DNA of 34,833 bases from Hysterium pulicare CBS 123377 (lineage: Eukaryota > Ascomycota > Dothideomycetes > Hysteriales > Hysteriaceae), in NCBI GenBank assembly GCA_000467715.1, contig AJFK01000744.1, positions 1 through 34,833 of the forward strand, written 5' to 3'. The notes beneath the pieces were generated by a model. The model searched no databases and had not been told where the DNA came from. It saw only the letters and a program-made list of their open reading frames with translations. Below are positions 10,153 to 28,665 of this stretch, piece after piece (positions within the stretch are counted from its first letter, which is position 1; each line of letters begins with the position of its first letter). A program made the position numbers and the translations under genes.

Positions 10153-12595
10153 TCATCTTTGATACCAGGTCTCGCTCGTATAGTCCTTCTTCGGCCCCTT
10201 TACCTCATACGTGATACCAAACGACTCCAGACTTGCCCCTCTAAATCTGAACTCGCAATGCGACTCGTACATATCTTTCTCGCAAAGATGTGCTCCGTTA
10301 GCAATCCAGCCTTTGTGCAAGGAGTTCGTGTCAGATGATGGTGTTTGAAACCTCATTTCGACGAAGAAGTAGTCGACGGTCTGGCCATCTTCCTTGACGA
10401 ACCAAGCGCTAATCTTATCCGTAACTTCGTTGTATCGGTACACGTACCGTCGATTCGCTCGCAGAGTAAATCCAGTGTCAGTTGTAAGAGTGCCTTCCTC
10501 GATGTAGAGGTACTCGGCAAAATATTCTTGGTCTGTTGGGGTTCTCGGATGGAATTTTGCGGTGCCAATGAAGGTTCCAGATGGAAAGCCTGGTAGTCTA
10601 CTGTCTAGCTTTCGTTGGATGATCCAGTCGCCTTGCATAGCACGAAAAGCTGCGGCCGCAACAAATCGAGCTCGATTGGAAGATTCTTGCAACATGCCAT
10701 GAAGCTCTTGAATTACCTTCGCAGCTTCAGCTTGGTCACAATCCTTGGTCACATATCGTGCAGCAACGCAAGGTCCCTTCCTCCCGTCGAAGCCCGCATC
10801 GTCCCGTTGTACCCTAGCTTCTTGAGCACAACCATCCATCAGGCCCACATAGTCGTTCATCCAGAACTGAGGGACATCGTTGAGGCCTTTGAGCATGGCT
10901 TCCCTGAGAGATCGAGATTCGCTCAGCTCTTTCTGCGATACTTCGTCGGGCGAAGTGTAGTGATCATCTGAGGCTAGCCATTTTTGGGCGACAAGACGGG
11001 CTTGCATTTCCATCACGCCCCAGTATGGGCCCTCGTAGAAGCCGACGAAGGCGATCTCGGGGACACTATCGTTGAAGATAGAGTTATGTTGGAATAGGAG
11101 CGGGAGACGATGGGTCTGGTTATCGTATTCCATGGCATCTAGGACTTCTTGCGGTAGCCAGGAGAGGGAGGTATGGGGTGTAAAGCCAGTGGCGTAGATG
11201 ACTTCAACAACATTGTCGATTGTGGTTTCCTGAATATGTAAGCGATTACGTAAGTACAGCTGTCCAAGTTCATGCTCATACATGTGGCCCATTGAGATCC
11301 CATGGCTCTTCCGATTTCGCTTTCACGATGCAGGCACCTTTCTCAGTCCCGGAGTCAATCCGCCTTACTCTGCCTCGAATTGGGACAATTTCTCCAGACC
11401 TTACAAACTCAAAGTATGTATCTGCAATGCCCGTGTATGCTGGATATTCTGTCTGCTGCTGGCTGTACACAACCTCTGGATGTCCTAGATCTCTCTGGTC
11501 GCCTCCAATAAGCGTCCTTATGAATTGGTGCGACTTCACCGCCGTTTCTGGAGGCATGCGACCATGATAAGGCTGTATAGGACCGTCAGGTCGCCGAGAG
11601 AGGTTATACAAGCACAAATCGAGAGGAAGGAAGTTCGGAGCGAGATTGTAGTTCTGTATTGCGGGGTTGTAAGGTTCTCGCGGGAGGTATCGAGGAAGAC
11701 AGTAGAACGGACGGTTGAAAACATGGTAGATCTTGCAACTAGCATAGTTTGGTTTGGAACCTGGTGCGTGTCTTGCGTTCGATATTTGGAAAGCTGCGTT
11801 TGCTGCTGCTTCAGAACCGCTAATACCGCCACCAATAACCACGACGTTACCATTGATTTCCTCATCGTGAGGTAAGATGTTTGTGAGATTGCGAAACTGG
11901 GAGCTGTGTTGAAGCTTTACTGGAAACGCAGAACCCTTGTAACCGTCTTGTGTCTTTTCGAACGTCAATGGCCGCGCAGAAGAAAAGAATCCGCTCCCCA
12001 CGACCAAATAGTCAAATATCGAGCTGGAAAAAGGCAGGTCTGCTTTATTCGGCATCGTAGAGCCATTGAACGTGGTTTCATCTGGCAAGTTCTTCTGCAG
12101 CACCTTGACCCAATCAACCTTCCATTTCCTGACCCCATCCTGTTGTATCCTCTCGGCCTTTGTGACTCGACTGTTCAAATGTAGTATCTCATCGGGTAGG
12201 TATTTATTCGAGTATGTCTCCAGGTATTTGCCCACCTGCCACGCTTTGGGGAACAGTGGACGGTGGCCAGGACCCTCCCCCAAGTCCACGGAATCCCAAG
12301 CCAGGTCCGAGAAAGCCACGGTAAACCGACTGAGATTCGTAGGCATCTCAGGGCTGAATTTATCACCATGTTCACCCTTCCGCACTCCCCACATTCCACC
12401 AACTCGATCTTTCTGTTCCAGGACCGTTACTTCGAATTTGGCGGAGTGGAGGAGGGTTTTGGCCGCGACTAATCCGGCAGGCCCAGCGCCGACAACAAGG
12501 ACGGATTTCATCTTGTCGAAGCTCGGAGTTGGCAAAGAGACGCGCGAAACTAAAGGGACTGGTCCTAATGATCTCGCCGTAGTATCATGTTTCAA
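10153..12595 (-). CDS. Flavin-dependent monooxygenase (FMO-like) fused to a DUF6314-like C-terminal domain
   Basis: Two exons, 12595-11282 and 11229-10153, joined by a 52-bp GTATGA...CAG phase-0 intron, give 796 residues. The N-terminal half is an FMO-type flavoprotein: FAD-binding VVGAGPAG (36-41), 'VTVLEQKDRVGGMWG', the HSSQF segment matching the FMO HS.xY signature region, a second nucleotide-binding VVIGGGISG (about 252-258), and YATGF (450-454), the ATG-containing motif of this superfamily, lying just after the splice site. Such enzymes use FAD and NADPH to insert one oxygen atom into soft nucleophiles or carbonyls; the substrate is unknown. From about residue 630, starting at MQGDWIIQRKLDSR, a beta-rich domain resembles DUF6314 from memory. 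An ATG at 12511, giving a protein that starts MKSVLVVGAGP, is an equally good start; the extra 28 residues of the longer form do not look like a targeting peptide. A degenerate copy of the gene's 3' end lies immediately downstream. Confidence 0.85.
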
Positions 12596-16304: not shown

Positions 16305-17925
16305 ATGTACACCAAATCGGCCCTTCTCTCCAGCGTCTTCGCTGCTGCGGCTTCTGCCCAGCAGGTGGGTACTCTCACCACTGAGACCCACCCGTCAATG
16401 CCCATTCAGTCATGCTCTGCAGCTGGCAGTTGCTCGACAGTCAACACCGCCGTGACAATGGACGCCAATTGGCGTTGGCTACATTCTACTAAAGGCTACG
16501 ACAATTGCTACGCCGGTAACACCTGGAACTCAACGTACTGCCCGGACGGCAAGACATGCGCGACAAACTGTGCTTTGGACGGAGCTGATTACTCTGGCAC
16601 ATATGGTGTGACCGCCAGCGGAGGGGCTTTAACCCTAAAGTTCGTTACCGATGGCTCATACTCCAAGAACATTGGATCAAGATTATATCTCATGGCTTCT
16701 GATTCAAAGTACGAAATGTTCAAGCTTCTAAACCAGGAGTTCTCATTTGACGTGGACGTCTCAAATCTACCGTGCGGTCTTAACGGCGCTCTGTATCTTA
16801 TTGAGATGGACGAGGATGGTGGTATGGCCAAGTATTCTAGCAACAAAGCGGGTGCCAAATATGGCACTGGATACTGCGATACCCAATGTCCGCACGACAT
16901 TAAGTTCATCAATGGCGAGGTTCGTATCCATCTACTTCTCCTTCCCTACCACGAGTTCTCCCTGTAACCAGAAATACTAACATCCCGAACAGGCCAACGT
17001 CGCAGGCTGGACGCCTAGCACCAACGACGCCAACGCCGGTTCGGGGACATATGGTTCCTGCTGCAACGAAATGGACATCTGGGAAGCCAATTCCGTCTCC
17101 GCAGCCTACACTCCCCACGTCTGTTCAGTCAACGGACAAACTCGCTGCTCCGGTACCGACTGCGGCGACGGTAATGACCGCTACAGCGGAATCTGCGACA
17201 AGGACGGCTGCGACTTCAACTCCTACCGCATGGGTGACACTGGCTTCTACGGCAAAGGCAAGACCGTTGACACAAGCTCCAAGTTCACCGTCGTAACGCA
17301 ATTCATCACCTCCGATGGCACATCCTCTGGCAGCCTCTCCGAGATCCGTCGTATCTACGTCCAAGGCGGAAAGGTAATTCAGAATTCCGTCACCAAGATC
17401 TCCGGCATCACACAAACGAACTCCATCTCCGATAAATTCTGCAACGAGCAAAAAACCGCTTTTGGCGACACCAACTCGTTCGAGAAGCTTGGAGGTCTGA
17501 AGGGTATGGGCGGTGCCATCGGCCGCGGTATGGTTCTCGCTCTTTCAGTCTGGGACGACCACTCCGTCAACATGCTGTGGCTCGACTCGTCGTACCCAAC
17601 CGATAAGGATGCTTCCACGCCTGGTGTAGCTCGTGGAACATGTGCTACTGACTCCGGCGTCCCAGCCACGATTGAAACTTCCGAGGCCTCTGCCAGCGTC
17701 ATCTACTCGAACATCAAGTTCGGAGCGCTTAACAGCACGTACTCTGCTACTGGCTCTACTGGAAACACTGGCTCCGCCGGAAACACTGTCTCAACTGGTG
17801 CCGGTGCGTCGACTGGGACTGTGGCGATGTATGGACAGTGTGGCGGTACTGGGTATACTGGAGCTACCGCGTGCGCTTCTGGTACTTGCAAAGTTGTCAA
17901 CTCGTACTATAGCCAGTGCCAGTAA
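16305..17925 (+). CDS. cbh1: GH7 cellobiohydrolase I with C-terminal CBM1
   Basis: Two exons, 16305-16919 and 16993-17925, with a 73-bp GTTCGT...CAG phase-0 intron, give 515 residues, close to the 513 of Trichoderma Cel7A. A signal peptide (about residues 1-18, ending ASA) is followed by QQVGT, the classic mature N-terminus. The catalytic domain runs to about residue 455 and shows DANWRWLH (substrate-tunnel Trp), many paired cysteines, and [11 protein letters not shown] with the nucleophile Glu231, Asp233 and acid/base Glu236 (precursor numbering). A Gly/Ser/Thr-rich linker ([17 protein letters not shown]) leads to a complete fungal CBM1: [15 protein letters not shown] to the final YYSQCQ. 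The enzyme releases cellobiose from the reducing ends of crystalline cellulose outside the cell. All key residues are present, so it should be active. It is probably under cellulase-type induction and carbon repression, which is known for the family but only weakly visible here. It converges on the P450 gene. Confidence 0.97.
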
Positions 17926-20387: not shown

Positions 20388-21103
20388 GCTGATGTGTATG
20401 AAAATGAAGGAAATATCGTGAGAGCTGAGTGTGAGAACGAGGTCATTGGAAAGTAACAAAACCGATCATCAATGAGGGGAAGATCTCAATTCCCATGTAC
20501 TGCCCTATCCTACGCCTATCTTATCAACATGCATTGCATATGCACTTCGGGCAATCTAGCGCATGGAGAGGAATAGGCCATCTGGGACGTGAGGAAGCAT
20601 CTTAGCTCTGGTTGCTTCCAGAAGATGATTGCGCCATTGCTCAGTTCACACCATGCTGTGTACGAGTGAGTTCTGCGAGTCTAAATCCTTATCGTCATAT
20701 AGGAAGGGGAATAAAAGCAAAGTTGAAGTTTGATGTAGGTGGTTCTATGATACGCAAGAATTGCCGAGGGCGGGGAACAAGCCTACCTCCGGCTTTTTCC
20801 CCCCTACATTAACCCCAGCCTTGCGAATGACGAATTCAATGAACGATGAACTGCTTAGATTTTGCTTCTACATAAATCTGAAGACATGAATGTTGAAAGC
20901 CGAGCTTTCCTTAAAATTGGTAAATTACGTCTCGTGGGAGGCTATTGCCTCGGTTTGATAAACCTGAAGTGAATGTAATTAGGGGATAGTCATTGCCGCT
21001 AATTCATGATGACTCTAATAAACCAAATACATTAATGAGTGTCTTAGGAAGAGACACGATAAGAAAGCCAATTACAGAAACATAAGAGATATCCCAGCAT
21101 ATT
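20388..21103. other. Intergenic region between the P450 promoter and the first tandem secreted-protein gene
   Basis: These 716 bp hold the P450 promoter on one side and the 3' end of the secreted-protein gene on the other. Frames are short and without motifs; no repeat was recognised. Confidence 0.45.
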
Positions 21104-21565
21104 TCAGGAAGCTGAGCAATCGTGCTTGCACGTGCACTTGTAATCGTCTGCCGGTACCTTCCAAGCACTATCGAATATATGAGTATAACTCCCATTGTTA
21201 GAGCTTTTCACAACTTACCTGAAATACCATTGTTCATAAAAGCGATCTCCCGTTCCCCTGTTGTCGAGTGCGTCCGCGAACCCGTCGACGCACGTATCAT
21301 GATCCATTTCCCAAGGCGTCACACCCCTGTAGCCCAGAAAGAATGACCACACGAAATCGGAAGTGTACGTATAGCAGGCGCGTTCCTGGTGATAGCTCGC
21401 GTTATACGTATGCGTGAATTGGGTACATAGGGAAGGCAGAGTCATGATCGTGGTGTGAATATTGTCACTTGTTGGTACGTTTGGATCTGGGCTACCGCTC
21501 GCGGGTATGCCGGAAGTAGTGGAGATAAGGCTGGAGATAAAGTAGAGAAGGCGTTGGAGATGCAT
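21104..21565 (-). CDS. Small secreted protein, tandem family member A
   Basis: Two exons, 21565-21219 and 21167-21104, with a 51-bp GTAAGT...TAG phase-2 intron (branch CTAAC), give 136 residues. A hydrophobic N-terminus (about 1-19) looks like a signal peptide. The mature part has Cys47, Cys64 (in ACYTY), Cys92 (in DTCVDGFADAL) and, in the last exon, Cys127 followed by CTCKHDC, so this member has three extra cysteines at its end. The order of cysteines, the 'C-x-D/G-G-F/M-x-x-A-L/M' block and the place and phase of the intron agree with the other members at 22127 and 23133, and the first three features also with 24536. There is no similarity I can name. It would be secreted, possibly an effector acting on a host or competitor; that is inference from size, signal peptide and local amplification. 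Confidence 0.75.
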
Positions 21566-22126
21566 CGTAGCTTGGGGATCGATCGTACTTGAAGCTTCAA
21601 AGAGTCTGGTTTGTAGATTGTGAATATGTGGGCTTGAAAAAGCTTTTAATGAAGAGTGATCTTAATCGAGTGTCTGTTTCGTTGAGCAGTTGTGTAAAAT
21701 TGAAGATAATTAATGGTAGGAGTTTGTGTAAAGATTTATAGAGGATAAAAAATCACGTACAAGCTAGAAATGACATTCATACAAGAGTAATACAGATCCA
21801 GTCATAGCGAAAGCAGTTATAGCAAGTAGTTATAGCAAAGGTAGTTATAGCAAAAGTAATTATAGCAAGTAGTTATAGCAAATAGTTATAGCAAACACAG
21901 TTATAGCAAAAGTAATTCTAGCAAGTAGTCATTGCAAAAGCAATTATAGCAAAAAACAGTTATCAACTCCTTGAACGGTAGAGTCAATTCAAGATAGCAC
22001 ATTCGCAAATCCAATTCCAGCCAACATCAGCCCATCCCAGACAACGGTGTCAATCGGAAACAGAATAGAATGAACTATGGACTATTCGGTTCGTTCCACC
22101 GGGAAACAATAGTAAAAAGCCGTGCT
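21566..22126. other. Intergenic region between family members A and B, containing a minisatellite
   Basis: These 561 bp are AT-rich. They contain the promoter of member A, the short tandem repeat at 21801-21965 (listed separately) and the 3' flank of member B. Confidence 0.5.
21801..21965 (+). repeat. Minisatellite, about 11-12 units of 13-16 bp
   Basis: The unit GTTATAGCAA plus 3-6 variable bases (AAGTA, GTA, ATA, CACA) is repeated in tandem with small length and base differences. It lies 236 bp upstream of member A and downstream of member B. Units differ enough for this to be neither a perfect recent expansion nor an assembly artefact. Confidence 0.9.
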
Positions 22127-22590
22127 TTAAGAAGGGAATGTGTGAATACAGGCGACCGCGTCCGGACCCTCTACTACGGCGAAACTGAATACCATTAATA
22201 AGAGTACAGCACCATGTGGGTACTTGGAGTAAATGCATACTGAATATCGACTTCTTCGCCAGAGGCCCATTGATCGTTCTCAGTAAACCATTTGATCTGG
22301 CTGTCACAATTGTCGAGGCTTAAGGTGCCACTCTTTTTGCCCTTCTTGAGTCCGGCGTAGAGCTCGGCATGGTTGGAAAAGGTGTTTTTGGCGATTGGAA
22401 TCGCGGCGCATGTCACCCTATGGCTACCCGCGCCAGAGTTGCCTTTCTGTTGATAGGATCCTTGAAGATCATAGCAAATGGCATCGGCTCTGCCTTGTAT
22501 GGCTTGCAAGTAGTCGCTTACGGATGGGGTATACGCAATGGTTGAAGAAATGAGGACCATGGTTCCGCCGAGGAGACTGAGGAGACGCAT
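22127..22590 (-). CDS. Small secreted protein, tandem family member B
   Basis: Two exons, 22590-22241 and 22184-22127, joined by a 56-bp GTATGC...CAG phase-2 intron, give 135 residues. Without splicing the frame ends 15 codons after the donor, in a tail unlike the other members. With splicing the tail becomes 'HFAVVEGPDAVACIHTFPS', which aligns with the last exons of members A and C. Signal peptide about 1-19 (LLGGTMVLISSTIAY). Cysteines: Cys39 (AICYDLQGSY), Cys61 (RVTC), Cys95 (DNCDSQ) and Cys129 in the last exon. The C1-C2, C2-C3 and C3-C4 spacings are 22, 34 and 34 residues against 17, 28 and 35 in A. A lysine-rich loop (GLKKGKKSG) between C2 and C3 is unique to this copy. Function is unknown. 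Confidence 0.72.
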
Positions 22591-23132
22591 CTTGACTCGG
22601 ACTTCGGTGTATCGCGGGAAAAGTTGTAATATATAGCTGATAAATTTCGAATAACGATGAAGAGTATTCGTAGGTTTAAAAAAACTTGATGATAATTATG
22701 TATGAGAAACTTGTGAGATCGAGTGTGTTACGGAGAAGGATATTGAGAAGAAAAGGGAAACGAGTAGATATTATATGCCGACCCTCAGTTGAGTCAAGTC
22801 TATATCGTCATTGAAAGGGAAGCAACTTGAAGATAGAAAGAAGAAAATATGATTCTTGTGTGTAGTACATTCAATTAGTCAAATACATGTTGTCATATAG
22901 TACAAGTCGCAAAATAGAGAAACAAAGAAAGACTCCTCCGCTCCACTAAGCCGCAATGAAATTGGGGATGAGAATAGCCATGAGGCCGGCAAAGCATTCT
23001 ATCAAAATGAAAGGAGGAAAGAAAACTAAAAGTCTTAGAATCACCAAGGCCTTTAATTAAAGAAGTGAGATATCAGAAGACCAGCACTAACTTCCGTTAT
23101 GTTTCGCCCAAGCGTCCAGTCACTGACTTTGT
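22591..23132. promoter_or_regulatory. Intergenic region upstream of member B and downstream of member C
   Basis: These 542 bp are AT-rich. At 22792-22805 the plus strand reads AGTCAAGTCTATAT, about 203 bp before the ATG of member B; a near-identical element lies at the same distance before member C. No gene is seen. Confidence 0.4.
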
Positions 23133-23639
23133 TCACCAAAAACCTTGAAACACGCATGGGATCGTAGAGTTTGGTGGTTCCGTCGTAATTTTGAAGCTAC
23201 AACCTGGGTCAGCGGTGCTTCAAATGGAAGAGTTTACATTGGCATACGTGTAGGTCCACAGGTCATCCGTCCATGCCGTACCACTTGACGCATCTTTCCA
23301 AGCGCTTAACGCATTTGTCATGCCCCCCCAACACGTATCGAAGGTCATGTTGGTTTCCTTTCCAAGGGATTGCGTTTCACTGAGTGAGACGTTAACTGTG
23401 AGGTAGTTGTTGCTGATTGCGTCGAATTTGTAACATATAAATTTGTCATAGGTGATCGAGCTCTGGTTTCCCGTCTCAAGGATAAAAGGGAATGCTCCTT
23501 GAGTGTCATTGCAGAGTCTGCCACGTACTGCTTCCGCAACGATTCGGATCTCGGTGGAGGGGGGCATCGAATCAGTCAGCAAGGCCGAGACTGAGGAAAT
23601 TAAAACAGCGGAGTAGCCGATAAATGTGAAGAGATGCAT
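23133..23639 (-). CDS. Small secreted protein, tandem family member C
   Basis: Exons 23639-23248 and 23196-23133, separated by a 51-bp GTATGC...TAG phase-2 intron with a CTGAC branch site, give 151 residues. An alternative CAG acceptor 5 bp upstream would close the frame at once, so the TAG acceptor is chosen; the resulting tail 'FKITTEPPNSTIPCVFQGFW' matches the pattern of members A and B (F, then P, then Cys). The signal peptide covers about residues 1-19. Cysteines: Cys43 (RLCNDTQGAF), Cys69 (ICYKF), Cys103 (DTCWGGMTNAL) and Cys145. Several Asn-x-Ser/Thr sites (NDT, NQS, NVS, NMT, NST) would be N-glycosylated if secreted. 'LCNDTQGAF' and 'GNQSSITYDKFICY' are closest to member D ('TQGPF', 'GNQTRMICY'), so C and D look like sister copies. 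Function is unknown. Confidence 0.78.
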
Positions 23640-24535
23640 GATGAACTAGTAGTCGAATCTGAATGAATTTGGAGGATCCTGGTAGGATGTCGATAGCGAA
23701 GAATCTGTTCAGGTATGACCGATATTATGGTCAGGATTGCGAAGTGACTTTAAGCTGGTTTGTGATTGTATTTCGTGATAGCGAAGTTCGAGAATGTTAG
23801 GTAAATGGAGTGGAAACGTGAGGAAGATGAGGTATTTGACCTAGTCAAGATATATTGACTTGGCTTGGAAGTATCGCTTGACTCTTTTGCTCTCGAGGCC
23901 CGTGCGGCAAGGTTACTGATAGTTCTGATTGACTGGTGTTGGTCATCAGAATGCGGTACAGGTAAGAGATGTGGCACCCGCAGTGAAGTTACTCATCGAT
24001 GATAAGAATACGTCATCCAATGACTGCTTCGGAGTGGAGTCTCAGCACAACCTGCGAAAGCGGTACTGCAATGGTATATTTTCGGGACGAGATTATGAAT
24101 CACCGGGTGTACTGTCAAGGGATGGGCTTAGGGCCAGACCAGAATAGCTGGAGTGAAAATATGTAGCCCAGTACAGCGCAAAGTGAAATTGATCAACTGT
24201 CTAGATGTACAAGATATGAAATGGCAAGAAAACCCACACGTTTGTCAGCATTTGTGGGACTTGCTGCAAATAGAGTCACCAGCGGCGAGCAGACGTTAGA
24301 CTATTGAGTCGAGTTACAACTTGCGGGCCATCCAATGATGCCCTGGCAAAGTGGAGGGCCGCACCAAAAAGGATCCGGGGGAGCCCCAGCAGCAGTCCCG
24401 TTCTGCACCTCATAAAAGGAAACACTTGCATAGATTCAGCTCGTGTTCACTTGTCAAAAGTATGTAAACTTACAAATAGCTCCACCAACCCGTACCATAA
24501 GTCTTAAGGAACGGGGCCATGGGCCTAGATTCGCT
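23640..24535. other. Intergenic region between members C and D
   Basis: It contains the upstream region of member C, with AGTCAAGATATAT at 23843-23855 about 205 bp before its ATG, and then, from about 24535 down to about 24300 on the minus strand, DNA that still resembles the tail region of the family (see member D). No other gene is seen. Confidence 0.45.
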
Positions 24536-24853
24536 CTATGCCGACATCGCATGTGTAAAGCCATCTAAACAGGACCCAGTACCTTGTTGCGCTGAATAGA
24601 ATTTACCATGTGGCAATGGCATATTGAACGAAGAACCGAAGATGAAGTAGTTGCTAGCGTTGCGGCCCGAATAACAGATCATTCTAGTTTGGTTTCCGGG
24701 CTGTGTGGAGAACGGTCCTTGCGTAGAATATCCGCAAACATATCTTAAGGTATCATTGATGGACCGTCCCAGACCGAAAGTGGCGTTATCGTTCATCGTC
24801 AAGGCGGCCGAAGTGAAAAGGAGTAAGAGAGCAGACAGAGTTGGGAGTCGCAT
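24536..24853 (-). CDS. Small secreted protein, tandem family member D, shorter than its relatives
   Basis: A single open exon of 105 residues from the ATG at 24853. The signal peptide (about residues 1-19, LSALLLLFTSAALT) is the most typical of the four. Cys40 (YVCGYSTQGPF), Cys60 (MICYSGR) and Cys95 (GSCLDGFTHAM) align with C1-C3 of the family; Asn-linked glycosylation sites are present. The frame closes soon after the third cysteine block, before the intron and fourth-cysteine exon found in A, B and C. DNA beyond the end still looks related to that missing tail, so this copy may be decaying, or it may now make a shorter protein. It is closest to member C. Function is unknown. Confidence 0.6.
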   Translation of the reverse strand: MRLPTLSALLLLFTSAALTMNDNATFGLGRSINDTLRYVCGYSTQGPFSTQPGNQTRMICYSGRNASNYFIFGSSFNMPLPHGKFYSAQQGTGSCLDGFTHAMSA

Positions 24854-25565
24854 GATGAAGCGTGGCCACGAGAAATCGAGATCGAGAATAGTGTTGTATT
24901 AAGAATATCGTAGTATCATCGATTCTAGCTGGAGCAAAGGAGGATCAAGCCAAATATTGAGCCGTGATAAAGCAAATAGATATTGAGAAGAAGAGATGTA
25001 GAGATCTGGTAGGAATATTCTGAATAGAGATATGGTTATAAATGATCCGAAAATTGATCTGCTTGTAGCGGTGGTGAAGTGTGTAACGTTGTAGATGTGG
25101 AAGATGGAAGAACACCATATACGTTTGACGCCGCTCGATGACTGTCGGGCTGGAGTCGCCAAAGGATGTATGACTGGGACCTACTCTTCAAGTTGATTCT
25201 TCGATGGGGCTGACTACTCTTCCACCAACATCATTCTTCAATACCAGTGAAATCTGTTAACGAACCAACCAATCCACTCCCCTCATTCCAAACATCTATC
25301 AATATCGAAAGCAACATACCTCGGTCTTTCGCATACGACTCCTTTAAACTTTGAGAACGAAGTCAGCTATCCGCACAAGCTGAAAGAGCGGCCTTGCCAA
25401 TACGAAAGCCGGTACGCTTACTCAACCTGTCGTTCGCCAACGCGAAGCAAGATACTTCGACCATTTGAGAACCCCTTCTGCGGACTGGACGCCCTAAAAC
25501 GGGGAGACTTCGACTATCGCACAGCTTACATCGACCCCATCTCACAAGTGAATCCATCAATAAAG
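24854..25565. promoter_or_regulatory. Divergent region between member D and the secreted protein at 25566
   Basis: These 712 bp separate two divergent starts and should contain both promoters. No TATA box stands out, and short open frames on both strands have no recognisable motif. Confidence 0.4.
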
Positions 25566-25901
25566 ATGAGGCTCAACGTTCTTTCAAGCCTTATGGCCTA
25601 TCTGGCGCTCACGACAGCTGAGCCAAAGAAGAAGAAACCTTCCCCAACCCCTGATTCAACTCCAACTCCAACATTGACACTATGCGGCCCTTTGTGCACC
25701 TCGAATTTTGCCGAAGTGGAATTTTGTCTCACTGGTGGCGGACCTCCTAACTGCATCGAAGGACAATGGAACGATTACGTGAGTATATCCAGTGTCGAAA
25801 GTCGAGAGCTCCCGTTTAGAAATGAGAGTACAACGCTGATACAAACAATCCTGAAGTCCGACTGTTGTCATAACAATGACTACCCAGATCCCGTTGACTA
25901 G
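25566..25901 (+). CDS. Small secreted cysteine-rich protein, unrelated to the tandem family
   Basis: The ATG at 25566 opens MRLNVLSSLMAYLALTTAEP, a signal peptide, followed by a basic KKKK stretch and a Ser/Thr/Pro repeat linker (PTPDSTPTPTLTL). The cysteine region is CGPLC, EFC, PNC and, near the end, DCC: six cysteines. The frame is open throughout (111 residues), but a strong GTGAGT donor at 25779 and an AG acceptor ending at 25856, with a CTGAT branch-like site between, define a 78-bp in-frame intron. Its removal gives 85 residues and brings the last two cysteines close to the others. I favour the spliced form; the unspliced one cannot be excluded from sequence. The family is not recognised. 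It lies between the tandem cluster and the xylanase, so it adds to the secreted genes of this island. Confidence 0.65.
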   Translation: MRLNVLSSLMAYLALTTAEPKKKKPSPTPDSTPTPTLTLCGPLCTSNFAEVEFCLTGGGPPNCIEGQWNDYVSISSVESRELPFRNESTTLIQTILKSDCCHNNDYPDPVD

Positions 25902-27239: not shown

Positions 27240-28665
27240 ATGGCAATTGCTACCGCACTAACATTCTTTCTTGCTGCTACTGGTATTGTAGCATCTCCTG
27301 TGGAGTAAGTTGTCCAACCTTCGCAGTAACAAGCTCAATGATTGAAGTTGAGCTAATACAAATGCAGATACCGCGCTACAGATGGATTGAACACTCGTGC
27401 TATTGCTGCTGGCAAACAATACTTCGGGAGTGCCACCGATAATCCAGAATTGACAGATACCCCGTATGTCTCTGAGCTCAGCAATACAGCTGACTTTGGC
27501 CAAATCACTCCGGGTAATTCTATGAAGGTAGGACGATCCCCTGGTCATAGCTTTTCATGCCAGAAGGGCTGACACCCGAATAGTGGGATGCAGTTGAGCC
27601 TTCTCGTAATACATTCACCTATACGCAAGGCGACGCGATCGCAAGTCTAGCAAAGAAGAATGGCCAGAAGCTCCGCTGCCACAACCTCGTCTGGTACAGC
27701 CAGCTGCCATCATGGGGTACGCACTCAGCAACTGCTTAACCTCCCTCCAAAATCCATGCCTGACATATTTTCCAGTCTCCAACGGCGGTTTCGACAACGC
27801 CACCCTCATTAGTATCATGAAAAACCACATCACAAACGAAGTGACCCACTACAAAGGCCAATGCTACCACTGGGATGTCGTCAACGAAGCCCTGAACGAA
27901 GACGGCACCTACCGTCAAAACGTATTCTACACAACCATCGGCCCAGCCTACATCCCCATTGCCTTCGCGACCGCCGCAGCCGCCGACCCCAGCGCAAAAC
28001 TCTACTATAACGATTACAACATCGAGTATACGGGTGCGAAATCCACGGGCGCGCAAAACATCGTCAAACTCATCAAACAATACGGCGCCAAAATCGACGG
28101 CGTGGGTTTCCAGTCACACTTCATAGTCGGCCAGACTCCTTCTCTATCCGCACAAACCAGCAACCTGAACACTTTCGTAGCTTTAGGTGTCGAAGTCGCG
28201 ATTACTGAACTCGACATCCGAACAACAACCCCCGAATCCACCTCCGCGCTGGCTCAACAGGCGCAAGACTATGCTAGCACCATTGGTGCTTGTCAAGCGG
28301 TCTCGAAATGTGTCGGTGTTACGATATGGGATTATACTGATAAGTACTCTTGGGTTCCGAATACCTTTTCTGGATACGGTGCCGCATTGCCTTGGGATAG
28401 CAATCTGCAGAAGAAAGCGAGTGTCTACAGTGCGATTGAAAATGCTTTTGGCTCTGGCTCTGGCTCTGGCTCTGGAACTGTTGCGACTTCTGCTGCGGCA
28501 ATCGTCTCTACAGCTGCTCCGGCTTCTACCTCAGCGGTTGCTGCTGCGGGAGGAACCGTTGCGAAATGGGGACAGTGCGGAGGCGTTGGGTATACTGGCG
28601 CTACAACTTGTGCGGACGGCAGCACCTGTACGAAGTCGAATGATTACTATTCGCAGTGTCTCTAA
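27240..28665 (+). CDS. GH10 endo-1,4-beta-xylanase with C-terminal CBM1 (4 exons)
   Basis: Exons 27240-27304, 27368-27527, 27584-27716 and 27776-28665, with introns of 63, 56 and 59 bp (phases 2, 0 and 1), give 415 residues. A signal peptide (about residues 1-19) precedes the catalytic domain, which begins '[21 protein letters not shown]' and continues '[14 protein letters not shown]' and '[15 protein letters not shown]', all typical of GH10. The acid/base is Glu157 in WDVVNEA and the nucleophile Glu264 in AITELD; '[15 protein letters not shown]' closes the (beta/alpha)8 barrel. A Gly-Ser repeat and an Ala/Ser/Thr linker lead to CBM1, '[15 protein letters not shown]' to the final YYSQCL. The enzyme hydrolyses internal xylan bonds outside the cell. 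Catalytic and binding residues are intact, so it should be active. With the cellobiohydrolase 10 kb away it forms a plant-wall-degrading pair. Confidence 0.96.

What the first reader, a model, noticed from the sequence alone, without database searches (positions are those of the whole stretch)
21104..24853. Tandem family of four unrecognised small secreted proteins with a conserved phase-2 intron
Four genes on one strand share a signal peptide, three aligned cysteines (C1 at residues 39-47, C2 at 60-69, C3 at 92-103) and a block of the type (D/S)xxCx(D/G)GFxxAL, weaker in member B. A, B and C also share a phase-2 intron at the same place and a short last exon with a Phe, a Pro and a fourth cysteine. 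Sequence identity is otherwise very low, so they are old duplicates that diverged fast, as effector families do. The short terminal exon is easily missed because the unspliced frame closes soon after the donor. I cannot name the family.
Basis: partly seen in the sequence, partly recalled or inferred. Interest (0 to 1): 0.78.

Follow-up and report, generated by a model that had tools for sequence, protein, structure and literature searches.

The report
Tandem orphan secreted fungal protein family
Four neighbouring fungal genes look like very old copies of one small secreted protein, linked by their cysteines and, in three of them, by an intron at the same place; families of this sort are common in fungi, and this one has no detected relative and no known function.

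Summary
The observation largely holds. Four minus-strand genes (A, B, C, D) have signal-peptide-like starts and three cysteines at the stated places. A, B and C each have a phase-2 intron 65-83 nt after the third cysteine and a short last exon with a fourth cysteine; dinucleotide shuffles give such a phase-2 model in only 3, 3 and 4 of 2000.

Corrections: A's last exon has no Phe; B lacks the GFxxAL block; D is cut off by an in-frame TAG just after its third-cysteine block, upstream of a donor-like site in the same phase, so D looks like a decaying copy. Kinship is clear for C-D, moderate for B, modest for A.

No relative was detected: Pfam, the protein collection and the own genome, the last tool being insensitive. 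The RNase-like (RALPH) idea is not supported: the intron lies near the C-terminus, the genome's T1-type RNase genes have a phase-1 intron elsewhere, and the low-confidence model has two helices. Most likely an ordinary, fast-diverging family of disulfide-stabilised secreted proteins, perhaps KP6-like (unproven). New member of a known kind.

The parts
21219..21565 (-). Member A, first exon (115 codons + 2 nt); cysteines 47, 64, 92
21168..21218 (-). Member A intron, phase 2, 51 nt, GTAAGT...TAG with CTAAC branch-like site
21104..21167 (-). Member A last exon (20 complete codons + stop), Pro and three Cys, no Phe
22241..22590 (-). Member B, first exon (116 codons + 2 nt); cysteines 39, 61, 95; lacks the GFxxAL block
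22185..22240 (-). Member B intron, phase 2, 56 nt
22127..22184 (-). Member B last exon (18 complete codons + stop) with Phe, Pro, Cys
23248..23639 (-). Member C, first exon (130 codons + 2 nt); cysteines 43, 69, 103
23197..23247 (-). Member C intron, phase 2, 51 nt, CTGAC branch-like site (a phase-1 alternative donor shares the acceptor)
23133..23196 (-). Member C last exon (20 complete codons + stop) with Phe, Pro, Cys
24536..24853 (-). Member D open frame (105 codons) ending in an in-frame TAG just after the third-cysteine block; probably a decaying copy
24474..24535 (-). Stretch after D's stop that still has a W-rich end and a phase-2 donor-like GTAAGT from 24473 down
22739..22755 (-). 17-nt element upstream of B, shared (94%) with 24979-24995 upstream of D
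   Evidence: B-D upstream score reached by 4 of 500 shuffles
24979..24995 (-). Copy of the same 17-nt element upstream of D

Best explanation
A, B, C and D are old tandem duplicates of one gene for a small secreted protein. Each product would enter the secretory pathway by its N-terminal signal, fold as a compact alpha-beta-beta-beta-alpha-beta domain held by two disulfides made from the four conserved cysteines (the last strand and fourth cysteine coming from the short last exon), and act outside the cell. As the core is fixed by cysteines and the surface diverges freely, the most likely role is binding of varied extracellular partners: plant host molecules (effector-like) or microbial competitors. 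D has lost its C-terminal part through a nonsense codon and is probably decaying. Shown by sequence or statistics: gene layout, cysteines, introns, kinship (A weakest), D's stop. Inferred: secretion, disulfide pairing, fold, role.
For: Hydrophobic starts, cysteine positions and coding-frame codon usage in 4 of 4. Phase-2 intron and last exon with Cys in A, B, C against 3-4 of 2000 shuffles. Kinship by pairs and profiles; in the window-frame scan (245 frames of at least 60 codons) no frame other than the members scored above 5.1 bits. A third-cysteine-block pattern has 11 exact matches in the 37.2 Mb genome, two of them A and D, 3.3 kb apart on one strand; a first-cysteine-block pattern has 11, two of them B and C; the other nine in each list lie, by eye, in frames unlike these genes. 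B and D share a 17-nt upstream element. AlphaFold of mature A: mean pLDDT 57.7, helix-strand-strand-strand-helix. Orphan status: Pfam 0 of 4 at E<=1; protein collection none.
Against: A is not significant in any pair. Two profile tests are weak or fail: BC to A, 88 of 5000 shuffles as good; AD to B, 1071. Against a profile of A, C and D, B ranked 110th among itself and 2000 shuffles. The two motif patterns match the genome about as often as their reversed controls (11 against 9; 11 against 6), so only the co-location counts. Upstream regions: five of six pairs unconvincing. The models are of low confidence (C 37.4, A 57.7; five models of A span 39-58) and match nothing. No RNA evidence for the introns. 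Organism and lifestyle unknown, so an effector role is a guess.
Confidence: 0.68

Rival explanations
1. The family is KP6-like: the small two-helix alpha/beta fold with two to four disulfides that many fungal effector candidates and one antifungal killer protein share, acting on host or on competing microbes.
For: [quoted passage not shown] the model of A has two helices and three strands, with a further strand likely in the last exon (the last part inferred), and A, B, C have at least four cysteines.
Against: No KP6 structure stands among the rows shown, though the model is too poor to count that as a test. No sequence match. A first strand before the first helix, which I recall for KP6, was not seen in A.
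Confidence: 0.25
2. RNase-like (RALPH-type) secreted proteins whose conserved intron marks descent from a fungal secreted ribonuclease.
For: The same style of argument (fixed intron, eroded sequence) was used for RALPHs (PMC3582587 passages; PMC6759760 passages; PMC12830362 passages). D has a YxC (Y-V-C) at its first cysteine.
Against: The intron is in a different place from RALPH genes and from the two T1-type RNase loci of this genome, phase 1. No Ribonuclease Pfam match for any of four. YxC is absent at the first cysteine of A, B and C. [quoted passage not shown]
Confidence: 0.05
3. Only B, C and D are related; A is an unrelated small secreted protein that happens to sit next to them, its cysteines and intron being convergent.
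For: A's pairwise scores are not significant, z 1.6-1.8; the BC profile finds A only weakly (88 of 5000 shuffles as good); A has three Cys in its last exon and lacks the Q-G block.
Against: BCD profile finds A (1 of 5000 shuffles as good; first of 2000); A and D share the third-cysteine block; same phase-2 intron; same strand and neighbourhood.
Confidence: 0.15
4. The genes are relics of no present function: D is broken, and A, B and C may be decaying copies too.
For: D ends at a TAG before the place of the conserved intron.
Against: A, B and C have open frames up to plausible introns and in-phase last exons and gene-like codon usage; no repeat-induced point mutation signature (index negative in 4 of 4 kilobase bins 21001-25000).
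Confidence: 0.1

Closest known systems
Orphan candidate effectors of Pezizomycotina (Derbyshire and Raffaele 2023, PMC10462633; passages seen)
   Same: Short, cysteine-bearing, signal-like start, no Pfam match, diverged beyond sequence recognition.
KP6-like effector families (PMC9632046, PMC10942635; passages seen)
   Same: Two predicted helices, several strands, cysteines for two or more disulfides, several paralogues.
   Different: No sequence or structural match shown; model confidence is low.
RALPH / RNase-like powdery mildew effectors (PMC3582587, PMC7857584; passages seen)
   Same: Small secreted proteins with eroded sequence and an intron at a conserved place, often clustered.
   Different: Intron near the C-terminus rather than 163-201 bp after the signal peptide; no RNase match; YxC in 1 of 4 only.
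Ecp20 and Ecp32 families of Dothistroma and Fulvia (PMC9493481; passages seen)
   Same: Paralogues of very low identity within a species (14.2-40.9% and 22.1-42.1% in D. septosporum); Ecp20 proteins have four cysteines; intron position was used there as evidence of common origin.
   Different: There introns are present in some paralogues only; here A, B and C share one.

Membership tests
Orphan candidate effector (criteria of PMC10462633) | No Pfam match | tested here: met
   0 of 4 at E<=1
Orphan candidate effector (criteria of PMC10462633) | At most 300 residues | tested here: met
   About 135-151 residues for A, B, C by exon lengths; 105 for D
Orphan candidate effector (criteria of PMC10462633) | Secretion signal | tested here: inconclusive
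   Hydrophobic N-terminus in 4 of 4 by hydropathy; no signal-peptide predictor at hand
Orphan candidate effector (criteria of PMC10462633) | Not more than half of the mature chain disordered | not tested
   No disorder predictor run
RALPH (RNase-like) | Intron 163-201 bp after the signal peptide, mostly between the first and second beta-sheet | tested here: not met
   Intron about 290-335 nt after a putative 19-residue signal, 65-83 nt after the third Cys
RALPH (RNase-like) | YxC motif | tested here: not met
   At the first cysteine only D has Y-V-C; A, B, C do not
RALPH (RNase-like) | RNase-like fold | tested here: inconclusive
   Low-confidence models with two main helices; no structural match
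KP6-like | Two helices, several beta-sheets, two to four disulfides | tested here: inconclusive
   Order helix-3 strands-helix in A at pLDDT 57.7; four or more cysteines in A, B, C; disulfides not testable
KP6-like | Structural match to a solved KP6 | tested here: inconclusive
   Not among the rows returned; model too poor

The most novel reading that the evidence does not exclude
A lineage-specific secreted family with its own disulfide-held fold, outside the described effector fold groups, whose C-terminal phase-2 intron is a marker that would recover distant members in other genomes where sequence search fails.
Probability: 0.12. Interest if true: 0.5.

Novelty: new member of a known kind. 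Interest (0 to 1): 0.3.

Why it matters
If right, it adds one more orphan family to the fast-diverging secreted proteins of fungi and gives a further case, beside powdery mildew RALPHs, where a fixed intron shows kinship that sequence nearly hides. It also warns annotators: the short last exon with the fourth cysteine is lost if the unspliced frame is taken as the gene.

Tried and rejected

Repeat-induced point mutation was considered for the divergence and for D's stop: the composite index is negative in 33 of 34 kilobase bins and in 4 of 4 bins 21001-25000, so no sign of it. A search for 5.8S rRNA to place the organism found none (39 of 1289 candidates scored). Rfam at gathering thresholds found nothing in the window. 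Literature: five searches listed no paper that I could recognise as describing this family, but none could search by its sequence. PMC9816061 was opened for passages only and held nothing of use.

Full report
Setting. The window is contig C492 of a 37.2 Mb genome in 596 contigs. Its content is fungal in kind: a family 7 glycosyl hydrolase with a cellulose-binding domain (16305-17925, two frames), a cytochrome P450 (18665-19972) and a family 10 glycosyl hydrolase with a cellulose-binding domain (27712-28665). The four genes lie between these.

Observation. Four minus-strand frames start at 21565 (A), 22590 (B), 23639 (C) and 24853 (D). All four have a hydrophobic N-terminus, three cysteines within the stated ranges, and codon usage that prefers the gene frame: log-odds per codon 0.19, 0.30, 0.22 and 0.13 in frame, negative in both other sense frames of all four, and lower in the antisense frames (B's best antisense frame reaches 0.24). 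In A, B and C a phase-2 donor stands 71, 65 and 83 nt after the third cysteine, with introns of 51, 56 and 51 nt and an in-phase last exon of 20, 18 and 20 complete codons that holds a Pro and a Cys. Under fixed rules for such a model, dinucleotide shuffles of the same 240-nt stretches give a phase-2 solution in 3, 3 and 4 of 2000. The rules were written after the introns had been seen, so these rates are somewhat flattering. C allows a second, phase-1 donor to the same acceptor. The claim of a Phe in the last exon holds for B and C, not for A.

Member D. Its frame closes at TAG 24538-24536, directly after the third-cysteine block. The same frame then runs 62 nt further through a W-rich stretch to a phase-2 GTAAGT at 24473. 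Of the three acceptors listed downstream of that site, none of the in-phase frames holds a cysteine. One search found no model for D, but its rule excludes donors behind a stop, so that adds nothing. D is most simply a copy that has lost its C-terminal end; a sequencing error cannot be excluded. It was not read through.

Kinship. Local alignment of mature first exons gives z 7.4 for C-D (0 of 1000 shuffles as good), 3.5 for B-C (7 of 1000), and 1.6-1.8 for B-D and the three pairs with A. With profiles, the counts of 5000 shuffles that score as well as the true protein are: CD to B 10, CD to A 4, BC to A 88, BC to D 0, BCD to A 1, AD to C 0, AC to D 37, AD to B 1071. In an earlier run with three-member profiles A, C and D each ranked first against 2000 shuffles and B ranked 110th. 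So C and D are kin, B very probably belongs with them, A probably does, and A and B show no direct likeness. Two genome-wide motif scans fit: the third-cysteine block has 11 exact matches in the genome, two being A and D, and the first-cysteine block has 11, two being B and C. The reversed control patterns gave 9 and 6 matches, so the totals are near chance and only the co-location counts; I judged the other nine in each list by eye to lie in frames unlike these genes. A 17-nt element upstream of B and D (94% alike) adds a trace of duplication (4 of 500 shuffles for that upstream pair; the other five pairs were reached by 18-273 of 500).

Relatives. None were found: Pfam 0 of 4, three protein-collection searches, own genome. 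The own-genome tool failed to link C and D with each other, so remote copies may have been missed.

Fold. C with three relatives gave mean pLDDT 37.4, unusable; its order was a strand in the signal region, helix 27-45, strands 67-71 and 79-87, helix 100-119 and a short helix 125-128. Mature A with three relatives gave 57.7 (the five models 39.1-57.7), with helix 15-24, strands 29-36, 39-50 and 53-61, and helix 71-83; a further strand is likely in the last exon (inference), which was not folded. Structure searches with the model of A gave nothing significant. The two-helix layout is like the published description of KP6-like effector candidates (PMC9632046 passages), but that is a resemblance, not a test.

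RNase idea. RALPH-type avirulence genes have their intron 163-201 bp after the signal peptide, mostly between the first and second beta-sheet (PMC7857584 passage). Here it is near the C-terminus. The genome search found two T1-type RNase loci, both with a phase-1 intron by my reading of the sequence. YxC stands at the first cysteine of D only. The RNase reading is therefore not supported.

Verdict. A real, old tandem family of small, probably secreted proteins with a shared C-terminal intron in three members and one copy decaying, without detected relatives. This is a common kind of thing in fungi: one survey says that more than 95% of fungal small secreted proteins lack known functional domains (PMC10462633 passage). 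A role as effector remains a guess. Interest is modest.

Noticed in passing
21800-21963: Tandem repeat with a 13-nt unit (AAGTAGTTATAGC-like; longer periods 28, 43, 56 also called) upstream of A and downstream of B.
   Followed up: no
22739-22755 and 24979-24995: A 17-nt element shared at 94% by the upstream regions of B and D.
   Followed up: partly
25566-25901 (+): A further small frame with a signal-like start, a Lys/Pro-rich stretch and several cysteines, on the other strand; no Pfam match, and no non-member frame of the window scored above 5.1 bits with the family profiles; it may have its own intron.
   Followed up: no
16305-17925 and 27712-28665 (+): Glycosyl hydrolases of families 7 and 10 with cellulose-binding domains flank the cluster.
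   Followed up: no
10156-12595 (-): A flavin-dependent oxidoreductase frame followed by a DUF6314 frame, possibly one gene across an intron.
   Followed up: no
L004 and L005: Two T1-type RNase loci of the same genome, both with a phase-1 intron before a GADRV-type block, read by eye.
   Followed up: partly
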